Shown piece after piece: positions 1,226-50,964 of a stretch of DNA of 64,000 bases. Position numbers and translations under genes: made by a program. Origin of the DNA: Xylona heveae TC161 (taxonomy: Eukaryota; Ascomycota; Xylonomycetes; Xylonales; Xylonaceae). The notes below the pieces were generated by a model. It did not search any database. It worked only from the letters and a program-made list of their open reading frames with translations, and was not told the DNA's origin. The number at the start of each line of letters is the position of its first letter. The first letter of the stretch is position 1. The stretch covers positions 1,736,001 to 1,800,000 of the forward strand of contig NW_017264195.1 of NCBI RefSeq assembly GCF_001619985.1, in the 5' to 3' direction.

Positions 1226-1304
1226 GGCAAGATGGCCGAGTGGTTAAGGCGCTGGATCCAGGTTCCAGTGGGAAACCGCGTGGGTTCGAGTCCCACTCTT
1301 GTCA
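1226..1304 (+). tRNA. tRNA-Leu, anticodon CAG, no intron
   Basis: A class II tRNA can be folded directly. The acceptor stem GGCAAGA pairs with TCTTGTC (one G-U pair), the D arm is GCC/GGC around GAGTGGTTAA, the anticodon stem is CTGGA/TCCAG, a variable arm of about 11 nt follows, and the T arm is GTGGG/CCCAC with loop TTCGAGT. The discriminator is A, as expected for Leu. The seven-base anticodon loop TCCAGGT puts CAG at 34-36, so it should read CUG. Position 33 is C rather than the near-universal U. Internal A and B boxes for RNA polymerase III are present (TGGCCGAGTGG and GGTTCGAGTCC). There is no intron. Confidence 0.9.
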
Positions 1305-24811: not shown

Positions 24812-26334
24812 ATGACTGCTCACGAAGCAGAGTCCAACACCGCTGGTACACCACCCACCGAGCTTGATGAGAGGGCGAATACAGATCTCGAAAAGGAGGC
24901 ACCGGGTCGCTCCTCTTCTGAGAGCAGCCCTGGGCCACGCCCAACAACATCGCAGCGGGAGCCGCCGAATGGAGGTGTACGTGCTTGGTTGGTCGTCGTG
25001 GGAGCAACTGCCTCGCAGATCTGTACCTTCGGTTACATTCAGTCGTTTGGGTAAGTCATTCCAATTTTATTATTTTACTCGGATCCCACCCCTTCCCCAC
25101 CGCCATCATACGCGAATCATTCTTTGACTTTGAACTGACGGGTCCGCTTTTGGATTAGTATCTACGAACAATATTACCAAGCCAATCAGCTGAAGCACGA
25201 AACTCCCAGCAACATCTCTTGGATTGGTTCGCTGCAACTATGTCTGCTCTTCCTCTTGGGTATGGTTAGTGGGCCATTATTTGACCGCTATGGCGCACGG
25301 GTAAGTCTACTCTCTTCGAATGAAGGCGATGCCAAGAATCCACTGATTCGTTGCTGACCTCTGATTTCAAGGTTGTACTCATTCCGTCGTCTATTATCAT
25401 GGTCTTCTCGGCCATGATGACTAGTCTTTGCAAGGAATACTACCAGTTCATTTTGGCCCAGGGAATTCTCAGCGGATTTGCCTCTGGCATGATCTTCACC
25501 CCTGTCGTTTCGGCAGTGGGCCAGTATTTCACCACGCGACGTGCGCTCGCCATGGGTACTGTCGTGAGCGGTTCCTCTCTCGGGGGTGTCATCTTTCCGG
25601 CTGCCCTAAACCGTCTCTTCAACAATTCTACGGTTGGATTTGGCTGGGCGCAGCGAATTGTCGGATTCATTATGCTCCCGCTTCTGATATTTACTTGCTT
25701 GACGGTAAAAGAATTTTCCCCTCATAGACAGGGAGCCATTTTCCTTCCGAAGGCGTTCAAATCGGGCCCCTATATCTTCGCCAACATTGGCTTCTTCACG
25801 ACCCTCCTCGGCATGTACACTCCAATCTTTTTCCTGGTGACGTACGCTGTGTCACACGGAGCCAGCGTTCCAATGGCAATGTACATGGTTTGCATCCTTA
25901 ACGCTGCCTCCTTCATTGGCCGGACTTCTTCTGGGTACTTTGCGGACAAATTTGGTCGTTACAATGCCATGGTCGTTTCGACCATCGCCGCTGCCATTCT
26001 CGAGTTCTGCTGGATTGCGACGCACAACAATGCTGGTATCATTATGTTCGCAATAGTCTTTGGTGTTCTTACCGGTGCTGTTGTTTCTTTGTATTCGCCC
26101 TGTATTGCTGAGGTGACTCCGAACCGTTCAGATATTGGAACGTATCTCGGCATGGGAATGGCGTTTTCGAGCTTGGCTGGCCTTACTGGTTCGCCAATCA
26201 ATGGTGCCATGATTGAGCATTACGGGGATTACTGGCAAGCCGCTGTCTTTAGTGGGATGATGACGGTGGCAGGAGCAATTGCCAATACCATCGCAAGATT
26301 TTGGCTGGACAAGCGGGTATTCGTCAAGGTCTAA
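24812..26334 (+). CDS. MFS transporter, monocarboxylate-porter (MCT/Mch) type
   Basis: Three exons (24812-25050, 25159-25300, 25372-26334) give 447 residues. The cytosolic N-terminus is acidic and Ser/Pro-rich (residues 1-50), then PPNGGVRAWLVVVGATASQ begins TM1, the usual MCT opening motif. TM1 ends in FGYIQSFGIYEQYY across intron 1. About twelve membrane segments follow. The short motif GPLFDRYGAR after TM2 is the MFS loop signature, and the matching second-half motif is GYFADKFGRYNAM. Fungal members carry monocarboxylates, riboflavin or unknown substrates, so the cargo is not predictable. No metabolic gene adjoins it. The C-terminus is very short (KRVFVKV). Confidence 0.9.
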
Positions 26335-29300
26335 CTCGCTACCTTTGATTCAATCCTCTGAAGCCTTAGAAACACACTGTATATTTCCTTGAAAAACATC
26401 GGCGCTTATTCAACTTGATGGGCTTTACTTGCTGGAATGCATTAATATCCGACCCATAGTTAATAATTGTTTTTAGACATCCATATACTTTTTCTCCATA
26501 TTTGTGAACAAATGACCATGGAATGTGCGTCGGAATAAAGTCAATCGGCACGACGGATCAGATAGTTGAAGCTATGAGCGACAGCAACTATTTCACTCTC
26601 CGTGTCTCCGTTTGAGAGTTGACCGAAATGGAAAAAAATCTCTCAAGATCCCTGCTTTCGCTTGCACGACTTCATTTCGGAGCCCACTTCGGAGTTTGCG
26701 GACGACAGCGAATTTGAGTAATCGTTAGTTTTGGATAAATGAAGTGATTCTCTTGGTGAACATGAATTCAAGTTTGGAGTAATGATCGTCGTGTATTTCG
26801 GAGAAAAATGGAGATTGTAAGTTACACCCTATCTCCATGATATCTCCAAGGGAAAAAAAGCAGCTCCCTCCTGCATTAGCGTCGTCCTGACTAAACACAG
26901 TTAAGTCGCGCCCCACAGCTACGAGCGAGGAGCCGGAGTTAGACCCGACTCTCTTAAACTAACTTATGCATAGCTTCAGGGCCTTGGGCCCACTTATGCA
27001 AGCTCAGTCATACGGTTAACTTAATGCATCCTCTAAAGTGATTTGTGGTTGACTAAGCTAGGCCGGCGAACCTGCCATCACTTTGCCGTGCATAGGAAAT
27101 TGTGCGATGATAATACTCTTCATATGATGATAATAGATTTGCATATGAAAGAGTTTGAAATCGGATTGTACTTGTATAAGCCCATTATTATTGACCATCG
27201 ACTCTGCATCAATTTTAAGCTCAACGAGGTATGATTATTTGACGACTTCGCCTTGAAAAGACCTATGCACAGCGTCATTACAGCTGCCAAAGTGACTGGT
27301 TTACAGCTAGACGAGTCGTTACTGCAATGAAAAATCCATTCGATTTTATACTTCGTAACCTTAGCTGATCCGATTTCCCTCTATGCACCATCTCCGTATT
27401 TCTTTGCAAACGGAGCCTAAATGGGTTCATCCTTTGAATATGTTGCCTGTTTCTCGTCAAAGGATTTCGCCTTTGTTATGGAGTTTACATTGGGTCCACT
27501 GCAGAGACGACGGACGACCCCGCGAACCTGAACCGACTAAAGATTTTGCCGGGTCTACCACCGACATTGCTCGCTTTGTACAAAAGTACAGAGGTAGATC
27601 TCACCTGAATTCTTACCCGACAATGTGTATAGTCAGGTAACTGGCTACCGTAGGAGCCTACCGAACATTTCTCGACTACAGCGACTACCCAGAGAACAGC
27701 TCGCTCACTAAAGTACCTGGAATAACGGGTTACTATAGCGAGGTACCCTACACTATAGACCCCAAATGTATCTCCATACCTACCTTAGGTACCTTAGGTA
27801 TCCTATTCTACCTTCCCTACACAACTCTCTTGCGGGGAGATGAATGATCCCTTTTAGTTGCGGGAAGAAAACATCTAATGACACTTAACTGTCATAATTA
27901 GTGGAATGTCTTAACTGGAACCGTCAAATTAAGTCCCCGGAAGGGCTACTAAATAGCCGTGGGCTGCGGGGTTCTAGCAATAAACTAGTTGCCTGACGGT
28001 AAGTCCAACTGACGATACTATAGTACTATCGCTCTAAAAGTGGCGTAGAATCGACAGAGGTTTATTTCATTGTAAAGCCAAGCAGGGAATATATGGCAAG
28101 CAGCGTCGACGTCGCTGCTCAGTCGCAGAGGGAGTCCCTTCTTATTCCTGATTGGCTTTATCGTCAACTTACAAAGGCCATTCGTAAGATTGGTTCCAGT
28201 TATGATTAGGTAAGAAAGATACCTAAGATAAGTATAGATAGGGAGGTACATTAGGTAGATTACCGTCGTTGCCGTGGGCTTTCACCATCCTTGCCTGTGG
28301 CTTCCAAGTGACCAGGATACCCAGGCAGACCACCACCCCTTGGCTTTTGGCAATACCTGGGCATTCCCTACAGCGGGTGGCGCTATCTCTTGATGATCTG
28401 GTGATGATCCCTGACCTTTTCATTTTGCGTTTGCGCACTGGTTACCATATTGGGCGACGATCAAGTAGTTTCGTCACGCACCTGCACCATGTCCAGGGGG
28501 AATGTAACGTTCTCGGTATAATCCTTGTCACCATGACCCTTTCCCCCGCCTTTCCCCATGGGTTAGATGTCCAAGGATAAGGGTTCTAGGGGGTTGCATA
28601 GTACGGCTTTTTTTTTGAAGCTATTTATCAAATTGTTGTTAGTCTCGCGCGCGGAATTGCGCGGATTCATGTGCTCAAATTCCCCCGCTCTTCTTATCTT
28701 CTCTACGTTCCTTCTCATCTCTCCACGAAGTGATCCGAACTTCCCACATAGTTATCTGATCGATAGGCAATTGGGAATCCACGTAGGGGAACGAAAACAC
28801 ATCCCTGTTTTCACCGCAGACTGGGTTCAGATGGGGATCCTGGATACGTGTGAGAAATGTAGGCGCCGAAGAAGGGATCAGATTTGTACAGACTTCACAC
28901 AGATTTGCTGGGAACCCTTCTACCTGGATTTCAATCAAGACCCTTGAACTGGTCGGCTGCCTATGTGTTGCAGCAGCATAAGCGAACATGATTTGTATGC
29001 AGCGGACCTACACTGCATCCATCCGGCAACAGCATACATTGTTTTGGGGAACGTGCAGAACTCTTGTATCTTCTCTAAAATGAGAACAATGCTTACTGGA
29101 GAAACAAAAACGCGTCTAGCGTTACACAACAATATATAACATGCTAGAATTAACCTGATGATTAGGCACAATGATTGCATATCCCCGAGGTATGATTCGG
29201 CTTCGTGAAACTACCGTATATCAAGCATCCGGAAACTCACTGGGCCAAAAAGGAACCGAGTTGCTGGATCCCACAGCACATAGCGCGCAGGGAAAAAGAG

Positions 29301-31648
29301 GTACGTAATTGCATTTTGGAAAACCAGATCCGTCTTTTGTATCGTGAGGATCATCCATCGATCATCCGCAAATTCCATGATCTTCGGGACTTCTCATCAA
29401 CCTAAATGATTAAGCACTAAGCCGATACACGGCCGGTCTCCGGAAAAGGGGTGCCACTCTGGCCGTGCGCTCATCCTCAGCTCCTCGTAGGGCCAAAGAC
29501 TTGGCAAAACATAAATGATCATGCTATGTCTCCCCACGAGCTAGTTACCAAAACTTCTTTTTGCAACCCTCTCATCTGTTTGGCTTTTCCAGAGGCAGGC
29601 GCTTTGCAGACGGTATTTTGTGCTATGCCGAAGCTCTACAAATGAATCCAACATGCTGCACCTGGCGCGTAAAGTAATCCGGCAGAATATTGCACCGCGA
29701 ATACGTGATTATATTAATCTCGTAAAGCTGAGGCAAGATGGGTTTAAATTGTGCTGTGCTCAGACGGTCCAAGGTAACAGAATATTCCGATAGTGTAGCC
29801 ACTTGACGTCATTTTAAGATCGACAGTCAGATGCTATTGTTGCAGTTAGCACTCGTGCGGACCTGATAAAATAAATCAAGCAACTTGATCATAGATAACT
29901 CCTATACGCGTGAATGGCTGCAAAAACCTGAGGTCTAGCATAGTCTATTATTCTGACAGCAGTAAGCTGTCTGCGCAGCGAGGATGACAGATTAATCAAC
30001 CTCCCAGAACGGTAATCCTGTCAGAGCAGAAGACACCGTCGACCGTGGAGTAGCTTACCGGGCTCAGCCACCAAGGGTCTGTTCAAGGGTAGGTGGGAGC
30101 CCCGTTGCTGCGTTTCCTTCAATCTGGGGCGTGGGGCCTGCAGCAGTAAGTCCACCTGCCTCAAGCCACCATGAGTGGGGGAGAAAAAGGAAGAAACCTG
30201 GGGAAGGCGTCTGTTGATGTGTCTTCCGTCTGCAGTAAAATTAGTACAAAGTGGGGAAATGGCAAAATAATCATGAAGTAAACAACAACAGACCACGCTC
30301 TTCCAAATTAGAAACGATGCAACAAGGCAACTTAGCTCTCCAAGGAGAGAGGCTAGTTATGGTAGAAACAAAATAGACGATAGAGAGCCAAGCAAATCAT
30401 GCCGACCCGCAATTAACGGGCGCGATGGGGGAACTCGGGAATATCCAATAACGCAAGCATCTCCACTAATCTTTTCCAATCTGCCACGCTGCAGCCACAA
30501 AAATTGGACAATTACCTTGCGCAAAGTACCGGTACGAACAGCGTGTTCCACGAGCGAAATCAACAAGCTTGTTCCTGAACAAGGCGTCGTCTATGTTGGC
30601 CCTATCTTATGCAGCCACTCCTCGATACGCTGGGAAGCGGTCAAACACATGCAACAACAGGATTGGAGCGAAGAGGTGCCTGGTGTGTGTGCGTGCGTGT
30701 GTGTGGAGAGATTTGGAGGGGGAATGCATAATGAGTAATCTCGGGTCCTGAGTAAGGTCAGCCCTAACAAATGGGAGGCTTTCCATTTGGAGATCGCGGG
30801 CCTAGACCAATATCATCGCCAAGGACGACTCTAGCCTATCCCCTCAAGCATCGGTGGCATCTCCTCCCTCATGTCGTTGGAAATCTAGCTCCATAGTTTG
30901 TGGACACTTTACTGCACCATCTTCCTTTGCGCCGAATCCTGTTCGCCGGGTAGGCGGGGCATCACGGGCCGCAAAAAAGGGCCGACCCGCTCTCTGCGTC
31001 TTTGCCTCAGCATCTTGCGCCATCTTGTGAAAGTTGAGAGGTGACCGTGAAAGGATAAGGCTGTACTGTCAGTTAAGACGCTAGATTTTGTACTTGATGT
31101 TGTTGGTCTTGTTGCACGGAATAATATGTGTAATTTGCTCCATCATACACAATAAACACATTTTCTGTCAGTTACCCCCACCATTCCTCTTATTCGAGAT
31201 TGAAAGGGAGTGTGGTTGAAGATCAAAGAAGCTGAAGCCGAGCTGACGCCAGCGGCATAAAAATGTCAGGGCCACAGTCGTCTTACAATGCACACGTCGA
31301 GCGGTAAAAATGTAAAGCGGTCATGGCAAAAGGCTCCTGCTTAAGCCACCTATTTAACCAGATTTGGCAAAGTGAAACGAGAAAATGTTGAAGGTTTCAC
31401 CGTAGGCACAGTTCTATGAATGTGATAGAGAAATTTTGATGGTCTTATCAAGAGTACGAGCAACCATTTGATCATACTACGAAATCGTTCAATTCGAGAA
31501 AAGTAAACGTTGCATTGATACCTAGGAGAAAAGGATAAGACAGAAAAGTCAAAAGTCTAAGTACAATTTATGTATGCTTTACAAACTCCGTACAATTAGA
31601 AAACTCCAATTTCAAACTTGACGCTTTAACAAGTCAAATATCTCATAT
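26335..31648. other. 5.3-kb intergenic region, no gene recognised
   Basis: This is the largest gene-free stretch, directly downstream of the polyketide synthase. It contains CCTTAGGTACC-type palindromic sequence near 27780-27801, a related half-site pair near 28229-28258, and a GT-rich run near 30683-30706. Open frames up to about 125 codons (for example 28567-28947) have no domain, no splice support and unlike codon use. Confidence 0.45.
27783..27800. repeat. CCTTAGGTACCTTAGGTA palindromic repeat
   Basis: Two tandem CCTTAGGTA units; the internal CTTAGGTACCTTAGG segment is largely self-complementary. It is related to the 20-bp palindrome near 23.9 kb. Confidence 0.75.
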
Positions 31649-34600
31649 CTAAGCGGCCTGGACCTTGCCAGCCAGAGCATCAATGGTTGTATCCTGGCTC
31701 ATCAGCTCGTTCAATGCGACATTAAGACCGAAGCTGGCGGCAAAGAATGTCCTGAGCTGTGATGCAATCATACTGTCCAAACCATAGCTGGCCAGAGCTT
31801 TCTTGACACTAATCTGCTCGCGAGCAACGAAGAGAAGCTTAGCCATGGTATCGACAATGGCATCCATGGCAACCTCCACATATCGTTGATCGTTCTTGTC
31901 GATGGTACTCAAGACTTCACCCACCGGCACAGACTCGGTACTCTGCTCAGCGTTCTCAGAACTGCTCTGGAGAGCACGAATCATGGCGCTAACGGCAATA
32001 TTTTGGGACCATGGGACGTCTTCACCAGCATCTGTGTCGGACTCGACAGGAAGTTTTGCCTTGCTAGGATCAAGTCCCAATAGCAAACTGCTAGGCTCTG
32101 CCAAGGCCTCAAATTCCTCGGATTCATTGGCCTTGTCGGGAATGCCGTCGACTATCGCTGCTTCCAAGAGTTCTAGTACTTCATCTATTGGTCTTGTTGC
32201 CAAGCCAACCTCCGCATTATCACCTTCCTCCTGGACGGGGCCAAGGGCGATGAAGCGGGCGTTGAAGCCTTGGGATCTCCATTGACGTGCAATTGACTCA
32301 CGCAAAGTGTCAATGAGTGGATTAAGAGTCAAACCAGAATCACCAAGGACAGACTTGATGGAACCAAGCAAAGTGATGAACCGTGGCGGCGGGCCTTCCT
32401 TGACAAGTTCGTGAAGACGCCGTAACTGGTAGCTTTGAGACCGGAACGCTTTTTGATATTGAGCGTGATCGAGACCATCCAATGATTCATCCTATCCAAA
32501 TTAGAATTGATGAGGAAAACGATGCAGTGTATGCTCACCTCTAGATTGGCCGGTCCTTGAATAATTCCTCCAATGGACTTGCGGAATTTGACCTTCAGCA
32601 AATCGACATCGTTAGGCTTCGTCATAGAGCTCTCTACAAATGACAAGGAGACACCCAAATCGGCCAGCTGCTTAGAGTAATCATCAATCCCGGACGCATG
32701 AGTCGAGACGGTTTGTGGCTGCGAAATAAAGACGAGGTCTTTTGCACCCTTTTCAGCCAACCACATGCCGATTTCTCTGCCCAGATGGGATTCCAGACAG
32801 CCAATGAGAATATAGCTCTCATGTGGACTGCATTTGAGTGTCCAAGCATGGGGAAGAGCCTGGTATGTTCATAAGCGAGAAGACATAAAAGTATTGGTTC
32901 GTTATACTTACAGTTTCCTGAGCGGATTGATCAATCCGTAATACTGATTTGCCAAACTTGACGGCATCCATCTCTGGGAAGGACTCATCTCGGATCGCGG
33001 ACATTGGGAGTACTGAAGCCGGACTTGGAAATTGAATAACTCCTTCGCGATAGAGGGACAACGTCTCCGCGAGGAGGCTACAGCAATGTCAATATGGGAA
33101 GAATTCCAGCCAATACGGAGAGATATTTACCTGGAGAACACTTTTGGCTTCTTGGACACGATAAGATCCATATCAAGAGAAACCAAGGCCCAGTTCTGGT
33201 CTCGCTGACGGTGCCATAGCTGTCGCCCTTGGTCCTTCTCAGCGGCTATGCGGACGACAAACCCGAGCGGCGACACCATTGCGGACAGCTCATCCACATA
33301 GCCCTGGGACTCATGTGCAACTATGATATCAAAGCCTTTTTCTTTTGTGAGTTGAAGCGCATCGTTGACAAAAGACCCTTCGTCTGGCTTGAGCACGTTC
33401 TCCACGGGTATTTGGAGCTCGCGCGCGACGGCTTCAGAGCTTTGGTTAGGGCCAATAGAAGCGAAAACCTTGTAAACATTGTAAGCACATGAGGACTAAG
33501 GTAATATTGAAGATTGGGAAATTCACCTTTGCGCCTTTCAACTTGGCAATTGTGCTCATGGCGAGGGCGATGTCTTCATCGAGTATGTGCAGAAGCAGGT
33601 TCTGTAGAGCGTAATTAGAAAGGCACTCTCCATGTCTGTATTAATCAACTTACATCACCGGCGGAAACCTTGGCAATATGCTTGATCAGGTAAAGAGCCG
33701 AACAATATGCAATCGGCATAGTGGTAACTTTTTCAAGGATCTCCCCTGGCCGAAGCAGTTTTATTAGGTCTCGAGAGACCCTCATCTTGGACTGCCAGCC
33801 ACCTCTGGCAAGTGCAAAAACATTGTCACCCTTGTGGAGCCCAAGAATTCTTGATCCGACACGAGTCACGGTGCCTGTACATTCTCCAGTGAGGGAGAAG
33901 CCGGGAACTCCGTCTGCAGATCCAGAGTGTTTAAGTGCAACCGTCTTGAGGTCAAACTCAATCTCTTCGGGTTCGAGTGGCTTCGAAGTGTCGATTCTGT
34001 TTGTGAGGATCTCAGCAATGTCATCCGCATATCGAGCCTTCGCAGTAGACTTAATAGCCGGCGGAGCAGTGGGCAGAATACGCTTGATCTGAATCAAGCC
34101 ATCCAAATAGGTTAATTCCGTCTCCGTTTCGGCCGGTGCTGAAAGTCCTTCGGAGAGTATCAATTTTGCTAATTGACTTTCTTCACCTCCTTTAATGTCA
34201 AGCCTCAAAACGACAAATGGGAGTGTCGGATTCTGTGCCTTGATGGCTTGCGCAAAACCAGTAACGAGAACAGATTTCGGAGAATCCTCTGGCTGGAAGC
34301 CCGATGGTGTAACCCAGACGATAGATTTCGCATTATCGGACAGCTTTTTCAAGTTGGTGAATTCAGTCTCATTCATGTCTGGGAAGAGAGGTCGCTCTAA
34401 TTCGGCAAGCATTATGACTTGGCCAGACACGTCTCCAAGTTCGGATAGAGATACGACGTTAATAGAAATGCTCTGTTCTTTAGCAAGGTTTTCAACTTCC
34501 GATGCAAGCGCAACTGTCTGATCGCGGTATACCTAAAGACACAATGTTAGCTTCTCAAGCGGACTTCTTCAGAGCAGCATCCTTACTAGTGTCAAAGCTT

Positions 34601-37600
34601 CGTCCGCCTTGTCCTTGGACACGGAATTCACTGGCTCCGGCTCAATAGCTGTAGAGACCATGACATTCATGAACTGGCTTGGCTGAATGTAGTCGTCCAG
34701 CTCAATTGCTGGCCTGGTGAAACCGGTTTCTTTAAGGATAGTTTCCCATTTAGCCACCGTCATGAAAGGAGAGTTGGGTCTTCCATCAGTGTGACCCTTC
34801 CAGTAATCTTGGAACCCTCCCAAAACAATCGCCAGCCAGATTGGTTCAATGGTTGTCTCAACAAGGACTAACTTTCCGCCTGGCTTCAGAAGCGATCTTA
34901 CGTGGGTAAGCGTTTCCTTCATTACAGTTGTGGCATGGAGAACCTAATACACATTAGTCAAGTTGTTCAGGCCAATCGAGGTAGTCCCCTTACATTCGCT
35001 GCAATGATAACGTCCATTGAGCCCTTCTCAAAGCCCTGATCGCTAACGTCGCGCTCGATATCGATGGTGGCGTATTTCATGCCGCCATACTCCTTAAATT
35101 CTTCTCGAGCTCCACTCAAGAAAAAACTTGAGACATCAGTAAAAGTGTAGCTCCCATAGCGCCTGACTGGATCTTTTCCATTCAAGACAGCTAATATCTC
35201 TCGTGTCGCACCACCAGTGCCACCTCCAATTTCCAGGTAATTTGCAGCCGGGGACTTGTGGCCTATCAAATCGATTACCCGTCGCAACTGGACCATAGAT
35301 CCGCTTGCCGTAGCAGAGTTAGTATATAGCTTGGGCAGAAGCTCTCCTTCCATCAAGACTTCGTGTGCCGACGCTTCATTGTTGAAAATTCTCTCCATAT
35401 TCTGGTACATCCGGTGCATCAGCTGAGCCTCAACCGCGACAGGTCCAACTTCAGTACAAATCTTGTCAATCAGAGTATCGCGACTGGAAGGGGAGAGTGC
35501 TAGCGCTTCCTTTCCGTAGGCAATTTCTCCGCTTTCTGCTTTCTTGACTGTGGCATGCATCCAATCCCAAAATCGTACAAGACCAATGTCAAGCTCCGAG
35601 CGATCAACATTAGGTGCAATCTTCGAGACAAACTGAACCAAAATCGCGATGGATGCTTGATCAATCTTTTCGAAGGCCTCAGCGGCCTCGAATGACACGG
35701 GAGGAAACATCTCACGCGCGCGCTCTGGGAGAAGCCTGGTGTAGTCTGCCTTCCAGACGGGATGGGTAAACGGAGTAGCACCGGCATTTTCAGCCTGCCT
35801 AGAGCTTTTCACAGGCTCAGCCACAACATTACCAATATCCATCACTACTTTGCCAGAACTAGAGATGAGCTGAACACGGGCCTCGAGGTTTCCTGTATCC
35901 GTTTGCTTGCCCCAGGCCATTGCCGAACCATCAATATCTTCGATCGCCTCGGAAGACACAGGAATTGACAGTCTCGATAAAGTTATAGGCCGAACCAAGT
36001 TATGGGCATTACGAGGCTCGCCTCGTTTTGCTGCAATTAAGCCAAGCTGAATGCATGCATCAATTGCAGTGGGATGAACCTCATAAGAGGATTCGCCGAT
36101 AGGCCGACCTGTGCTTGGGAGGAGTGCAATTTGTGCACCTGCCTTGTTCCCCACAGGGTTGGTGCGCAAAAAGCTCATTGCCTGAAAAGCGGGCCCATAT
36201 TCTAGACCGAGGCTCGCGAATCTTGAATACCAGGCGTCTGCTGAAACCGGCTTCGGCGTCTCAGCCATATTAACCTGAGATTTTGTGCCTTGAACGCATT
36301 AGTGATGGGCATGCAATCGTAGGGACGATGTGACGTACTGATATTTTGACTCTGAATGCTGACAAGACCAGAGCAGTGTACTGTGGTGCGGCCGTCCGCG
36401 ATAGAAACAATCTCAAATGCCTGAGAGAATCTTGATTGACTAGAACCTTGCTCATGAAGACTTATGACGAGCTCAGTGTCGGAAGCCGACACACCTAGGA
36501 GAACAGGGTCCTCAAATGTGACAGCCGGAAAGTGATATCCTGAGATACGTTCGTTGCCTTCTTTCTCAGAAAACATTTGCTTCACGGCTTCCATCGCCAT
36601 AACAAGGAAGCATGCAGGAGAAAGCGTTGTGGTTCCTCGAACCTGGCATTGAATCAGCCCAAGATTAGTCTTTAAAATGAAATCTTTCTTGCTCACCTTG
36701 CAATCCTCAAGCCATGGAACATCTTGGACAGTAATAATATTTCTCCAGCTTGGGCTACGCGGGGAGCAGCCCGGGATTCTTGAGCCGAGAAGGTCATGCC
36801 GTAGAAATTTGCGTTCCTTCACCTCACGATGAATTCTGTTCTCATGCCAGAAAATATCTTTATACTGGTATCGATAGGTTGGCAGGTCGGGAATAACATG
36901 TCCCTTCCTCTGAGAACCGGTTTTCTGGTCTCGAACGGCGTTGATCTCATCAAAATTGATGTCGACGCAGCGAGTGAATAGAGTTCCAGCAAGAGAGAGA
37001 GCGCATGTTACCGCATCCTTTCCACGTGTCAGGACAGAGCTATAACCTGGAAATTTCTTGCCCTTTGACTTCAGCAGCGACTCCAGTTGCCGAATGGGAC
37101 CAGCAAGAGCTGAATGAGGGCCAACTTCAACAAGCATGTCCACAGGAACGTCAGGAGTTGAGACGAGATCTTCCAGTGCGGTCGTGAATAGCACTGGATT
37201 CTCAAGATTCTCTCTCCAGTATGCTGCGTCAAGACCATCTCCCTGGAAGCGCTTGCCATACACGGAAGAAAAGAATGTCTTCAATGGGCGTTGGAGCCTA
37301 ACACGGTCATTTGCAATCTGTTTCAGGCCATTAGATGTTGCAGACTCGTAATATTCCGAGACCTCTTTCATGTGGGGAGAATGGTACGCTTTGCCTCCAG
37401 TTTGGAGGACCCTTGCAAACACGCCCTCTGCAGAGACATCCTTGGTTATCTGGTCTATCGTCTCGGGATCGCCACTTATAGTCACACCCTCGGGAGAGTT
37501 GACTGCGGCTACCTTGACTATACCGTCGTAGTTACTCAGACGGGGCTCGATCGCATCTCTGCCAAGACCAATAGCAGCCATTGACCCCTTCTTGGTAATC

Positions 37601-39945
37601 TTTGTGACTGCCTTTCCTCGATAATATGCAGCGACAATTGCTTCCTCGCCGGTGATGATGCCGGATGCATATGCAGCACCAAGTTCGCCAGAAGAATGGC
37701 CCATAGTAGCCACTGGCTCAATATTCCAGGAGGCAAGCAACTCGACCAATCCAATCTGAAGGGCTGTGCAAATTGGCTGAGAGATATCCGCATTATTTAC
37801 ACGACTCGTCTCCTTTGGCTCTTGGAGGAGATCGAGAAATTTCCATGAAGGAGGTTCATCCAGAGACTGGAGAATGTCGTCCAAGGTCTCAATGGTTTGC
37901 TTGAATATAGGGAAGCGGAAGATGAGCTCCTTGCCCATTCCAGCCCATTGCGCTCCTTGTCCCGTAAAAATGAAGCCTAGACTGGAAGGCTCCTGGATAA
38001 CGGTGCTCGCGTGAGTCACGTTGTTTGCTTCAAGGCTTGTAGAGAGACTGTCTTGATCGGAAACGGCAAAAGCTTTATGAAGGAAACGCGACCGACGCGC
38101 GCCAAGCGTATACGATAGGTCTGCGATACTATACTCGCTTGCAACATTTCGTAGTGCCTCAATGTTGTTTTCGAGAGAGTCTTTGTCATGGGCAGAGAAC
38201 GGTAAGAGGTACTCGGGTGGAATCTCTGAGGAAACGGGCTTTTCTCCCGAATCGACAAGGCGCTGTCCGTGCTTGTAATTTGGAATGAAGCTCTCGACGC
38301 CTTCAAGAATAACATGCGCATTGGCGCCACCAAACCCGGAGGAAGCTACACTCGCACGGCGAACAGGAATATGCGATGGCCATGCAGTACTTTCAGTGAC
38401 GATCTTGAACTTATTCGCGTTGAAGTCGACTGGCTTCGATTAGCGCCAAGCTTCAGACAAAGACAAATATGGAACTCACTTCGAGGATTAAGATTCGTCA
38501 CACCCGTTGTAGGTGGAATAATGTTTTTCTCGATGGCAAGGACGGCTTTCATGAGTCCTGCAAGACCGCTTGTTGGCTCAGAATGCCCGACATTCGTTTT
38601 TACCTAGATATATTAGAATTGTTCAAAGGCCAAAGGTGGGGCGGAACTAACTGATCCGATGAGAAGAGGTTTGTCGAGAGTCCTTCCTTTTGAAAACACC
38701 CGTGAGATAGCGGATAGCTCAAGCGGATCTCCGACTGGTGTTCCAGTGCCATGGCATTCGTAGTAGCCAGTCATGTCCGGATCAAGCGTGCCAGCACGCG
38801 CATAAGCGTACCGCATAGCGGCTTCTTGGGCTGCTGCGGACGGATGAGTTATTCCGCTATTTTTCCCGTTGCTAACCATCCGTGTTAGCCCGTATCCAAG
38901 TGTCGGACAGGCAAAGAGGGGAATATCATTACGTACGCATTTACAGCCGTAGCTCTAATGACGGATCGGATTGGATCCCTGTCTCTGACAGCGTCTGAGA
39001 GCCTCTTCAGATAGAAAACGCCAAAACCATCGGCACGGCCATAGCCATCGCCGCTAGCGTCAAATGTGTGGCACTGAGAAGTGGGTGAGAGGGCGCCTAG
39101 TTTGTCCAAAAATATCTGCATATCTGGTGACAAGATCAAGTTCGAGGACCCAACCAACGCCGCTGAGGACTCGCCGGATTGCAAAGATAAACATGCCAAA
39201 TGTAGTGCGTAGAGAGAAGCAGAACAAGCAGTGTCGACAGTCATACTAGCGAAAAGTCTCAGCGAAATCTCAGAGAAAAGAAGGATGCTTGATAGCTCAC
39301 CTCGGACCTGTCAGGTTAAATACATAACTGACGCGGTTCGACAAGAAGGGAGCAATTGCACTGGTGGCGGTATAGGGTTTCGTGTATTCGGAGTCCCTGA
39401 CCTCGCCAAATAGGTGATCATGATTGAAATTTCCCATGAAACAACCAGTGTTAGTGCCAGAGATTGACTCCAGAGTTGCACCAGCCGATTCCAAGGCTTC
39501 ATAAACAACTTCAAGGATTTTTCTTTGGGCGGGGTCGAGGGTCATTGCCTCAACCGAATTGATTCCGAAAAAGGCAGGGTCAAAAAGCTTTGGGTCATCC
39601 TGAATGAAGTAACCGCCTTTTGTTGTCAAACTTCCAGGCCGGCTACGGTTCGGATGGTAGTAAGCGTCGATGTTGAATCGATTCGCTGGAAAGTCACTAT
39701 GTGCAGATCGCTTTTCCATCATCAATTCCCAAAATTTGGAAGGATTGACGGCGGTCCCAGGCCAACGACATCCTGAAAACCGGAATCTAGAGTTATTGTC
39801 GATTCTCATATTGGGAATGGTAAAGAGATTGCAAACACTTACCCATGCCAACAATTGCAATAGGCTCCGCAATGGGGACTCTTGGGGTCTCCATACTAGC
39901 CACGCCGGCCAATGCCGCATTGCTATCAAATTCTTCCGGCTCCAT
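31649..39945 (-). CDS. Reducing-type polyketide synthase with degenerate DH, ER and KR
   Basis: Fifteen exons give 2512 residues: 39945-39843, 39772-39301, 39245-38937, 38871-38652, 38603-38480, 38429-36697, 36642-36339, 36288-34994, 34943-34587, 34532-33654, 33601-33527, 33468-33131, 33077-32912, 32859-32539, 32491-31649. Every junction keeps the frame. Intact: KS (Cys199 in VDTACSAS, His335 in HGTGTP, His375 in NVGHSE), AT (Ser655 in GHSSGE), C-methyltransferase (SAM loop LEIGGGTGG at 1440-1448) and ACP (Ser2472 in YGLDSM). Degenerate: in the DH HxxxGxxxxP motif His is Cys986 and Pro is Ser995, though HPTAIDACIQ keeps Asp1165. The ER GGVGQAA site reads LDEDIALA near 1939-1946. The KR Rossmann loop reads GCLESHLG (2145-2152), and the KR Tyr position aligns with Asn2289. 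There is no thioesterase. Expected output is an unreduced, C-methylated chain released by cyclisation or by another enzyme. Confidence 0.93.
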
Positions 39946-41507: not shown

Positions 41508-43438
41508 ATGCTGGGGGCACGCCTGAATTTGGCCGTCCTTGCTCTGTGCGGGATCTTTAGCCAAGGTATTGCAGTGAACCGTTTCGGAGGCAATGTTGCG
41601 ACACCTAATAATATTGCGGCCGATGTCAAGTCTGTCCTGGGCCCAAAGCTCTCCCAAAATGCTACGATAGCATTGCCCGGTGAGCCGCTCTTCGACGAGC
41701 TTATTACCCGTTACAGTGACTATGACCGGCCGACCTTTAGTGTATCGATTGCAGTCGCTACAAAGGAAGATGTTCAAGCAGCTGTATGTGTTTCCCCGAC
41801 AGACGTGCTGAAGAGCTTTTGCAGAATAACATCATTCAGGTTGCATACGCCCGCTCGAAGGACATGCCATTTCTTGTCCAGTCAGGTGGGCATGGATTGA
41901 CTACTTCGACCCAGACCGTCCAAAATGGGATGCAAATTAGTATGAGGAGATTAAACTACACCATTTTTGATCCGGAAACCGAGATCATGAGAGTTGGAGG
42001 CGGCGCCGTCACAGGGGAACTCGCAAACGCATCCTATGCTTTGGGATATGAAGTTAGTAAGTAATTATTTTCTCAATCTTTGGGAGAAACCATATCAGCA
42101 CAGGAGCTGATTAGAGGGGAATAGCTGTCGGCTCCTGCCCTTGCACCGGGGTCATGGGCGTGGGTTTGGGAGCAGGCATTGGACGTCTTCAAGGCATGTA
42201 TGGCCTTCTGATGGATAACATTGTGGCTATAACAATGATGTTGCCTGACGGTACCATTGAGAGAGTGACCGCCGAAAGCAATCCGGACCTCTGGTGGGCA
42301 GTCCGCGGTGCCGGGCATAATTTCGGAATCGCTCTTGAAGCCGAAGTTCAGCTTCATCCCCAGGTGAACGACGGCATGCATTATGTTGCTGATATGGAGT
42401 TTCCTATCAGCAAGACTGTGGAAGTCTTCAAGCTATTGAATCTTATATCAGCCAACGAGATTCCTAAACAATTAGCTTTCTTTATTACCGGGCATGCCCC
42501 GGGGCCTGGATCCGGTGTGGTGAGTACCGATACGCAGACACTCGCTGGAAATGTGTTAGAGCTGATAGCAATTTGTGATAGCCTGTCATCAATATCGATT
42601 TTGTGTGGCACGGTACGAAAGAGTCCGCTCGAGAGCATCTGCAGCCATGGCTTGACCTTAAGCCTCTGTATAAAAAGGAAGAATATGTGAACTGGGCGTC
42701 CCTCCCCTGGGTCACCTATGGAGGTCTCAACAATATCCTCTGCAGTCAGCCTGGTGGACAGCGAAACTTCTACGCAGCAAACGCCGCAACGTACGATATC
42801 TCCGCCATGGCAAGCCTCTGGAATGACTGGGAAAAAATGAGCATCAAGTACAATGGAACGGCCAAGTTCCTGCTCATGTTCCAGACCTTCGCTCAACAAG
42901 CAGTCAAATCTGTCGACCCCGACTCTTCTGCCTTCCCATGGCGCAAGGGCTCTGAACATTTCTTGTGAGTATAATGTTCCTAGAGTTTCGACTTGATATT
43001 CCTATAATTTGAAGCTATTTTCGCGCGGAACTCGCATCATGAAGCAAGCGCAGACAAGGAGTACTAACTCAAACCCATCATAGGCTCATTCAAGCCAGCT
43101 ATACGGACCTTTCTTTACGTGCTGAGCTGGATATCTGGCTGCGTCAATGGCAAACACTCTTTGTTGAGACTAGTGGCTATGGTCGGCTTCAGCAATACGT
43201 GAACTATGGACACGGCTACCGTGATCCCATGGAGGCCTTGTACGGGTACGACAGGTGGCGAATTGAAAAGCTATATGGTCTGAAGGAGAAGTACGATCCT
43301 GATGGACTTTTCGATTCGTACCAACCCATCCGCACAGACAAAGCATCTCTCCTTGCTGCGGCTCGTCCGCAACTCCACACATATAAGCCGTTTGGCCAAG
43401 GTGTCGTTGACCAGGAAGTTTTGCACACCGAGTTGTGA
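41508..43438 (+). CDS. Secreted FAD-linked oxidase, berberine-bridge-enzyme type
   Basis: Five exons (41508-41783, 41840-42056, 42125-42519, 42582-42964, 43084-43438) give 541 residues. The N-terminus MLGARLNLAVLALCGIF is a signal peptide. The FAD-binding domain carries both attachment sites known for this family: His110 in QSGGHG and Cys169 in VGSCPC, so bicovalent FAD is expected. The C-terminal BBE domain is present (YVNYGHGYRDP, then LKEKYDPDGLFDSYQP). These enzymes oxidise sugars, alcohols or pathway intermediates and often drive ring closure. Its divergent pairing with the PKS suggests it modifies that product, perhaps in the secretory pathway or outside the cell; this is inference from position. 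Confidence 0.92.
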
Positions 43439-48375: not shown

Positions 48376-50331
48376 TCAGAATCCCCAGGTCAGAAAGCTA
48401 GATACGCTCCATCCATTGGCCATTGTGTACTCGCTGCTCTTCGTGGTACCATGAAGTACGTCATAATTCTTTTCTCCTGTGCAATTGCCCTTGACGCATG
48501 AAGCAATGAGACTACCGGCGTTCTTGCCTTCATAGTAAGCGGCCTGAAGGAAACCAAAGTATTCAGGGCTTGTGGCTTCTCCAGCGAAGTAGAGTCTGTC
48601 AAGATTTGCACGCAGGTTTTGGTGCATCTCCAGGGTGGTGCCCGGAGGCCAGTTCGAATAGCTTCCGAATGCCCATGGCTCCTTTGACCAACGCGGATAC
48701 ATAAAAGAGGTAGGCACGGGCACATTCTCAGGACCATACATCTCTCGCAGGACCGCCAAAACCTCCTCCTTTGTTTGTTCATCGTCTTGGCTCTCGACGC
48801 GATAGGATTGATCTTGGACCACGGTTACGAAAAGAATGCCGGAATCTGGAATAAACCCATCCAAATCGAGTGATTGCCAGACTGGGTAGTATCCGCGTGT
48901 AGTAGGGGAAGCGTAAAGCAAGAACTGATAGGAGGTATTCCAAAAGACTTTGTCCGGCGGAAATTGGAGGAAGAGTTTGGTGTACGTCCCCATCGAGAAA
49001 CTATCAATGGCTTCTTTTTTCCAGTCGGGTAAAGGCGGGTCAAATTCAACAACATCGTTCTGGAGCACTCCGACCCTGATAAAACGTTAGCCAAAATCTT
49101 GGCGACTGGTCGCTGAGAGTCCCGTCCTTACGAGAAGGTACAAATAGCATAATCAGCATCTACACAGCTACCATCTTTATTATATATGGTGACTCCCGAG
49201 TCACTGTAAGTGATGTCCTTTACAATGGTGTTCAATCGGAGCCGCGAGTCATTTTTTGCGAGAAATTCTGACGCTTCACCTTTGATAAAAGCATTGAATC
49301 CTCGCTGATCAACGACAAAATTGTTCGCATCAGACCACTGGTAAAATGTTGTGTTCTGCCAAGAGGTGTGAGCTTTAATTTTCAAACATACAAAGAAAAT
49401 CTTACATAGTTGACGACGGCAAATTCTTGAGACGATTGCTCCTGTTCATAGCATTAGATTGATGTCTTGATACTGATCGACGATTGAAGCCTACAGGGCT
49501 GTACGCATATTCCCAGTCAAATTCCCACCATTCGACTGCCTGTGCTTCCATGTTCTTTTTTGGTTTCCAGCCGGCCAAACTCAAGCCGCTGCGGACGCTG
49601 CGATCCTGCAGATTTTCGGTAAGTATGTAACCAGCATCTTGCTCAAATGTCGCATAATAATCTTCAAAATCATCTAGGAGCTGGCTGTAGTCGGCATAGC
49701 CCGAGGCATTGAATGTTTGTATTGACGAATAATTGCTGTATGTGTTGCTGATATTCCACTTCTTGGCCTATATCCCCAATTGTATTAGCAAACTATGAGT
49801 TCAGGCTTTATGAAAGACATACTAGAGTCCAAATTGGATTTTCAGGGCCGCCTTCAGACCCCAGTCCTTGTACCTAGAATTCGCTCGAGTGTGAGTATGC
49901 ACACCGAATGGCAGCCCAATGGCGACGCACCCAATTAGCACCTAGCTCGACGACGTATGGTTTCCCATGTTTATCGGCACCAAAAGTCGTGTGAGCGACA
50001 CGACCGCCAATATCTCCATTGTATTCGAGAATTATAAAGTCGGACACGGATTGATTGGATAAAGCTTGCTGAAGTGATTTTAGCTATAGATCTGGTTATG
50101 AATTTGACGAGTGAGCAACCTACAGCGGCAGTGATGCCTGTAAGACCTGCTCCCCTGATTTAGAATTAGATGTTGGAACTTTCGAGGTTGCAAGTTATGA
50201 TTTACGCACAAAATTGCCACAGATGTCTTCTGACAGGTCTCATTGCGCCGAGCTAATGGGGGACTGGCGGCAGTTCCTAGGCTAGCAGTTGCTAACAGCC
50301 CCAAACACGCAACCTTTCCGGACAAAAACAT
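48376..50331 (-). CDS. Secreted FAD-dependent amine oxidase (polyamine-oxidase type)
   Basis: Eight exons (50331-50210, 50154-50124, 50068-49931, 49873-49823, 49767-49495, 49441-49406, 49355-49132, 49075-48376) give 524 residues. The signal peptide is MFLSGKVACLGLLATASLGTAAS. The dinucleotide-binding motif reads AILGAGLTGITAAQAL, rebuilt over two introns, and FIILEYNGDIGGR supplies the ribose-binding acidic residue. ELGANWVQG is the family's substrate-side loop. The C-terminal FAD motif is YFAGEATSPEYFGFLQAAYYEGKNAG. Exons as short as 31 and 36 nt are needed to keep these motifs. It oxidises amines such as polyamines to aldehyde, hydrogen peroxide and ammonia or a smaller amine; substrate is unproven. 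It lies 630 bp downstream of the NCS1 permease on the same strand. Confidence 0.92.
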
Positions 50332-50964
50332 CGTCAACGAATTAATGGCCTTGAAAATGGGACAGGCAAATTGAGTAGAAGACGAAAGCTACCTTTATAT
50401 TTTTCCATCTTCTGTATTAGAGAGATAAAGACCGGAAGATGGGACAACAACAGCCTGTCGATCAATCTGTGCTTATCGCGTCCTTGCAGCTTACCGGAAG
50501 AAACTCCAAGGCATCGCAACAAGGGTCCCCCTGGAAAGGAAGTTGGTGTTGCTTTTTCGCTAACTGAAGAAAGCAGTCCATGCCGGTTCCTGAACAACCA
50601 AGAACCGACCCCCGGCCAAGCGCTGCTCCGATAGGAAGTCCCATGCGATCTTCTATCGCGCACCTGAAGGAAAATGGAATGGCGATTTAAAGTAAGAAAA
50701 ACAAAGGCAACAGTTCTAACACCGCTTTATGCAGCTATTACTATAATGCTGAGACAAAAGCTAAACACATAAGATGAGATCTAAATAAAAGCAGCTGAAA
50801 ATTGAACGTGATCTCCTTTTTGGAGAGACTCTCCTCTACTGGTTGATCACTTCTAATCTATCCTTCGTCTATGCTAAAGTCTTTTCCTTCAAGTCGTCGC
50901 TGCGGAATGAACCATCCCACCAGCGTACTCGATCAGACTTTCTACGCCAACTTTCTTTTATCTT
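50332..50964. promoter_or_regulatory. Promoter region of the amine oxidase gene
   Basis: This is the space between the permease stop codon and the amine oxidase start codon. A frame of about 109 codons on the - strand has no domain and no clear motif. Confidence 0.35.

What the first reader, a model, noticed from the sequence alone, without database searches (positions are those of the whole stretch)
31649..39945. A reducing-type PKS in which all three reductive domains look dead
The protein has the full KS-AT-DH-MT-ER-KR-ACP layout, but the signatures of DH (His to Cys986, Pro to Ser995), ER (GGVGQAA replaced by LDEDIALA) and KR (Rossmann glycines lost in GCLESHLG, Tyr position Asn2289) are gone. 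KS, AT, MT and ACP keep every catalytic residue. All splice junctions are clean and no stop interrupts 2512 codons, so this is not a decaying pseudogene: the structural shells have been kept while reduction has been lost. It should act as an unreduced, C-methylating iterative PKS, a product type normally made by a different PKS class. Lacking a thioesterase, alpha-pyrone formation would be a natural release route.
Basis: partly seen in the sequence, partly recalled or inferred. Interest (0 to 1): 0.78.

Follow-up and report, generated by a model that had tools for sequence, protein, structure and literature searches.

The report
Fungal polyketide synthase without working reduction
A fungal gene for a large, normally reducing chain-building enzyme has lost the key residues of all three of its reducing parts but kept the chain-building and methylating parts, so it probably makes a short, unreduced, methylated product; a related enzyme with the same losses is already known, which makes this an interesting variant and not a new kind.

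Summary
A minus-strand gene (39945..31649, 15 exons, 14 GT-AG introns) encodes a 2512-residue fungal-type KS-AT-DH-MT-psiKR-ER-KR-ACP synthase. The three reductive domains have lost residues that are near-invariant in a panel of 80 bacterial relatives. DH lost His and Pro (38 of 38 loci with a DH match). ER lost the GGVG loop (78-79 of 80). Motifs of KS, AT, MT and ACP are intact. ER and KR are eroded beyond the active site: KR keeps 13 of 29 conserved columns, LovB 23 of 28. The losses look old.

Best reading: an unreduced, C-methylating synthase releasing a short methylated poly-beta-ketone, probably as a 4-hydroxy-2-pyrone. Product and release are inferred. An intact, divergent flavin oxidase gene (41508..43438) may be a partner.

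Not a new kind: CpaS, of cyclopiazonic acid biosynthesis, has DH, ER and KR dead, and its MT too. Different here are the intact-looking MT and the absence of an NRPS.

The parts
31649..39945 (-). PKS gene, 15 exons, 2512 aa
   Evidence: spliced; all 14 introns GT-AG
38499..39867 (-). KS domain (residues 27-403); Cys199, His335, Lys370, His375 intact
   Evidence: Pfam; LovB 379.5 bits; panel; coordinates
37096..37974 (-). AT domain (562-854); GHSSGE motif intact
   Evidence: PsoA 196.8 and LovB 165.7 bits; coordinates
35804..36798 (-). DH domain (954-1250); catalytic His lost (Cys986, 36700-36702) and motif Pro lost (Ser995, 36619-36621); Asp1165 and Gln1169 kept
34869..35236 (-). C-methyltransferase core (1440-1545); SAM motif LEIGGGTGG and NVLHAT His1523 intact
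   Evidence: Pfam; LovB 151.1 and CurJ 147.3 bits; coordinates
34077..34484 (-). pseudo-KR (PF23114; 1656-1791)
32948..33884 (-). ER domain (1856-2113), degenerate; GGVG replaced by Glu1941-Asp1942-Ile-Ala1944
32228..32817 (-). KR domain (2140-2320), degenerate; Lys to Gln2251, Tyr to Asn2289, Asn to Asp2293, glycine loop altered; Ser2276 kept
31667..31864 (-). ACP (2442-2507) with GLDS site, Ser2472
41508..43438 (+). divergently transcribed BBE/PCMH-type FAD-linked oxidase, 541 aa, 5 exons, intact; candidate tailoring enzyme
   Evidence: model; FAD_binding_4 on one of its exons; solved relatives

Best explanation
It is a stand-alone fungal highly-reducing-type PKS that has lost beta-carbon reduction for good. 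KS and AT extend an acetyl starter with malonyl units, the C-methyltransferase methylates the alpha carbon of the beta-ketoacyl-ACP (its normal substrate, before reduction), and DH, ER and KR remain as scaffold. The chain stays a short methylated poly-beta-ketone and, with no thioesterase, leaves the ACP by cyclising to a 4-hydroxy-2-pyrone. The neighbouring flavin oxidase may act on it. Shown: domain order, catalytic losses and retentions, intact frame, intact neighbour gene. Inferred: activity of KS, AT, MT and ACP, starter and extender, chain length, methylation pattern, release, and the oxidase's role.
For: Reductive sites lost at near-invariant columns. KS keeps 67 of 81 conserved columns (LovB 74, PsoA 72) while KR keeps 13 of 29 (LovB 23 of 28, PsoA 24 of 29). 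KR is 27.4% identical to LovB KR although LovB and PsoA KRs share 45.2%; MT is 43.4% identical to CurJ MT (LovB to CurJ 35.6%). So constraint fell selectively. No RIP-like dinucleotide excess (TA/AT 0.58, window 0.67; second index 1.42, window 1.33); GC3 0.45-0.56 over all domains with no step at the reductive ones. Precedents in passages read: CpaS; pyrone from KR-dead FAS lacking TE; dead ER that serves as architecture in LovB (PMC7870829).
Against: No orthologue, transcript or metabolite was seen, so selection and activity are untested. KS lost a few more conserved columns than LovB or PsoA (67 against 74 and 72 of 81), which would also fit mild decay. Some identities do not single out the reductive domains: KR to the bacterial Lsd14 is 27.9%, PsoA to Lsd14 only 30.1%; DH to PsoA is 27.3%, PsoA to a MAS-like DH 31.8%; MT to LovB is 34.4%. 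In animal FAS a single KR Tyr mutant still reduced somewhat, so residue loss alone is not absolute proof. MT domains can be silent in fungal PKSs (XilA, strobilurin PKS, PKS8).
Confidence: 0.6

Rival explanations
1. Early-stage relic: the gene is no longer selected, the reductive domains are the first to drift, and the frame is open by chance or because decay is recent.
For: ER keeps 23 of 55 and KR 13 of 29 conserved columns, and KS has also lost some; no orthologue or expression evidence was available.
Against: ER and KR divergence is deep, yet 2512 codons have no stop and 14 introns keep GT-AG; KS, AT, MT and ACP motifs are intact; DH lost 2 of 12 conserved columns, exactly the catalytic His and the motif Pro, which does not look like random drift.
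Confidence: 0.17
2. The reductive steps are supplied in trans (as LovC does for LovB's dead ER) and the product is reduced after all.
For: Trans-acting ERs for ER-dead fungal PKSs are well known (PMC7421883; PMC10947347; passages).
Against: Pfam over 75 of the 108 listed ORFs of 95 aa or more outside the PKS matched 19 families, none an ADH-type or short-chain reductase. The other 33 ORFs and shorter exons were not scanned, and the rest of the genome is not held. In the passages I opened I met no case of KR, DH and ER all replaced in trans.
Confidence: 0.1
3. It makes only a diketide (acetoacetyl or 2-methylacetoacetyl) and hands it to another enzyme, as the CpaS PKS part does within one polypeptide, and not a free pyrone.
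For: Same pattern of dead reductive domains in CpaS, which makes acetoacetyl.
Against: The protein stops after the ACP and no NRPS or acyltransferase family was among the 19 matched by the 75 ORFs scanned.
Confidence: 0.13

Closest known systems
CpaS/CpaA, PKS-NRPS of cyclopiazonic acid (PMC3202784, passages)
   Same: Fungal reducing-type layout with DH, ER and KR present but lacking critical residues; KS, AT and ACP reported functional; unreduced product.
   Different: CpaS MT is also reported defective and it is fused to an NRPS module with a releasing domain; here MT looks intact and the protein ends at the ACP.
LovB, lovastatin nonaketide synthase (PDB 7cpx; PMC7870829, passages)
   Same: Best KS match among chains named as fungal (379.5 bits); dead ER kept as scaffold.
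   Different: LovB KR has S2294 and Y2307 and bound NADP; here KR and DH look dead as well.
TpeA (PMC9318984, passages)
   Same: Stand-alone fungal HR-PKS with DH and ER judged non-functional by motif (its author is cautious on the DH residue alone).
   Different: The passage read calls only DH and ER inactive, not KR.
KR double-mutant metazoan FAS without TE (PMC12856111, passages)
   Same: Reducing-type megasynthase with reduction off; triacetic acid lactone released without TE.
   Different: Engineered; no C-methylation described in the passages read.

Membership tests
fungal highly reducing PKS (by descent) | KS-AT-DH-MT-psiKR-ER-KR-ACP order | tested here: met
   ER is below the Pfam cut-off but aligns along its length to MAS and CurK
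fungal highly reducing PKS (by descent) | KS groups with HR-type fungal KS | tested here: inconclusive
   LovB is the best match named as fungal in the PDB, 46.0% identical; no fungal tree could be built
highly reducing PKS (by function) | catalytic residues of KR, DH and ER | tested here: not met
fungal non-reducing PKS | SAT and PT domains, NR layout | tested here: not met
   no SAT family among Pfam hits at E 0.01; DH-MT-ER-KR order present
CpaS-type PKS with all reductive domains dead | DH, ER and KR defective, KS, AT and ACP intact | tested here: met
   for this gene; CpaS itself from passages of PMC3202784, its sequence not compared
CpaS-type PKS with all reductive domains dead | fused NRPS module | tested here: not met
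   stop codon shortly after the ACP
CpaS-type PKS with all reductive domains dead | defective MT | tested here: not met
   SAM motif and NVLHAT kept

The most novel reading that the evidence does not exclude
A reducing-type fungal PKS has been turned by evolution into a dedicated non-reducing, C-methylating synthase whose reactive methylated poly-beta-ketone is the substrate of a divergently transcribed flavin oxidase. The oxidase's best solved match is EncM (97 bits), which from recall oxidises poly-beta-ketones; but that match covers only residues 76-243, the FAD domain, and matches nearly as strong that run along most of the protein are to carbohydrate and reticuline-oxidase-like enzymes, so EncM is a weak lead. 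(Odds set at 0.20 instead of 0.22 for that reason.)
Probability: 0.2. Interest if true: 0.65.

Novelty: new variant of a known kind. Interest (0 to 1): 0.46.

Why it matters
If active, it is a natural experiment on iterative PKS programming: which product KS, AT and MT give when all beta-processing is removed but the scaffold stays. It would also show that domain layout alone can mispredict product class in genome mining, and that C-methylation can be kept under selection without reduction.

Tried and rejected
Splicing or assembly artefact: rejected. The KR loop lies inside one exon (32539-32859), the ER loop aligns without gaps to MAS and CurK, and many independent positions differ. RIP decay: no sign. 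Paralogue search in the source genome: not possible. Viral contigs scan with the KS stretch found no relative. No fungal genome collection was on hand, so orthologues and selection could not be examined. Promoter scan and repeat search around the gene gave nothing above chance or of note. Papers opened that did not bear on the question: PMC4226871, PMC8403587, PMC10512364, PMC9495618, PMC13284220 (passages). Ten paper searches were made; in their listings and in the passages of the 14 papers I opened I met no stand-alone fungal HR-PKS reported with all three reductive domains dead and MT intact. Most listed papers were not opened, and papers outside the library were not searched.

Full report
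What is there. Pfam places KS, AT, DH, C-methyltransferase, a pseudo-KR, a weak ER, KR and ACP in the order of fungal highly reducing synthases. Among solved chains named as fungal, the best are LovB for KS and MT and PsoA for AT and DH. The protein ends just after the ACP; no thioesterase or NRPS family was matched. The source organism was not identified and no genome is held; a fungus is inferred from the short introns and these relatives.

How I tested the losses. The titles listed are bacterial. The scan patterns lay near the start of ER, so they did not select for the sites counted. In ER, three glycines of the GGVG loop (79, 78 and 79 of 80) are Glu1941, Asp1942 and Ala1944. In KR, the catalytic Lys, Tyr and Asn (79 of 79 rows with a residue, one gap) are Gln2251, Asn2289 and Asp2293; Ser2276 (79 of 79) is kept, and the glycine loop reads GCLESHLG with one extra residue. 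In DH, His and Pro (38 of 38) are Cys986 and Ser995, while Asp1165 (38 of 38) and Gln1169 (36 of 38) are kept; 42 of the 80 loci gave no DH match at E 1e-4 and were not assessed. The KS Cys, His, Lys and His are all kept (69 of 70 loci with a KS match agree at each). AT and ACP were checked by motif and Pfam only, MT by motif, Pfam and alignment. Which columns are catalytic is mostly recalled.

How deep the erosion goes. Counting columns conserved in at least 90% of the panel, the query keeps 67 of 81 in KS (LovB 74, PsoA 72), 10 of 12 in DH (PsoA 11), 23 of 55 in ER (CurK 52 of 52) and 13 of 29 in KR (LovB 23 of 28, PsoA 24 of 29). Median panel rows keep 96-100%; the lowest rows keep 36% (KS) and 24% (KR), probably fragments or misaligned. 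Pairwise identities mostly agree. KS to LovB is 46.0% and to PsoA 44.2%, LovB to PsoA 55.1%. KR to LovB is 27.4%, to PsoA 24.3%, to MAS 23.9%, to Lsd14 27.9%; LovB to PsoA is 45.2%, LovB to Lsd14 37.0%, PsoA to Lsd14 30.1%. ER to MAS is 28.4% and to CurK 23.4%, MAS to CurK 38.5%. MT to CurJ is 43.4% and to LovB 34.4%, LovB to CurJ 35.6%. DH to PsoA is 27.3% and to a MAS-like DH 28.4%, those two to each other 31.8%. So ER and KR are broadly eroded and the losses look old; DH is hit almost only at its catalytic motif, and its overall identity is not remarkable; MT is well kept.

Is it alive. In favour: no stop in 2512 codons, intact introns, no RIP-like signal, GC3 of 0.45-0.56 in all domains, and intact motifs in the non-reductive domains. 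Against or neutral: the frame through ER and KR must stay open for the ACP to be made at all, so it is weak evidence about those domains; KS lost a few more conserved columns than its fungal comparators; no orthologues, transcripts or metabolites could be examined. My estimate is about 0.8 for an active enzyme and 0.6 for the specific unreduced, C-methylating reading.

Mechanism. C-methyltransferases in these enzymes often act before beta-ketoreduction (PMC12010586, passage), so methylation does not need KR. Reducing-type megasynthases with reduction off give pyrones: animal FAS lacking TE, with both KR residues mutated, made only triacetic acid lactone, and its authors infer spontaneous release (PMC12856111, passages). 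The same paper found that single KR mutants still reduced somewhat, which is why the joint loss of Lys, Tyr, Asn and the cofactor loop matters here. Dead domains can remain as architecture, as LovB's ER does (PMC7870829, passages).

Neighbourhood. A complete FAD-linked oxidase gene (41508..43438, 541 aa, 5 exons) is transcribed divergently from the PKS. Its best solved matches are EncM (97 bits, residues 76-243 only) and 6-hydroxy-D-nicotine oxidase (94.6); matches along most of its length are to an FAD-linked oxidase-like protein (92.3), a reticuline-oxidase-like protein (91.9) and a carbohydrate oxidase (91.5); the sorbicillinoid oxidase SorD follows at 63.8. A tailoring role is a guess. Pfam on 75 of the 108 listed ORFs of at least 95 aa outside the PKS matched 19 families, among them MFS transporter, amine oxidase, GT2 and aldehyde dehydrogenase, but no alcohol-dehydrogenase-type or short-chain reductase that could act in trans.

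What is known. Dead ER with a trans-acting ER is well known in fungal HR-PKSs. TpeA is reported with DH and ER non-functional (PMC9318984). CpaS is reported with DH, MT, ER and KR all lacking critical residues and makes acetoacetyl (PMC3202784). The present gene differs from CpaS by an apparently intact MT and no NRPS. I therefore call it a new variant of a known kind. All 14 papers opened were seen as passages, with abstract openings in listings.

Noticed in passing
41508-43438 (+): Intact BBE/PCMH-type FAD oxidase gene, divergent from the PKS, with a hydrophobic N-terminus that looks like a signal peptide (by eye); best solved match EncM in the FAD domain only.
   Followed up: partly
26400-31600: About 5 kb between the MFS gene and the PKS with no ORF above 153 aa.
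   Followed up: no
48379-50388 (-): Flavin amine oxidase gene pieces (PF01593; two ORFs match), apparently split by introns.
   Followed up: no
25324-26334 (+): MFS transporter exon (PF07690), about 5 kb downstream of the PKS.
   Followed up: no
1226-1304 (+): tRNA-Leu (CAG).
   Followed up: no
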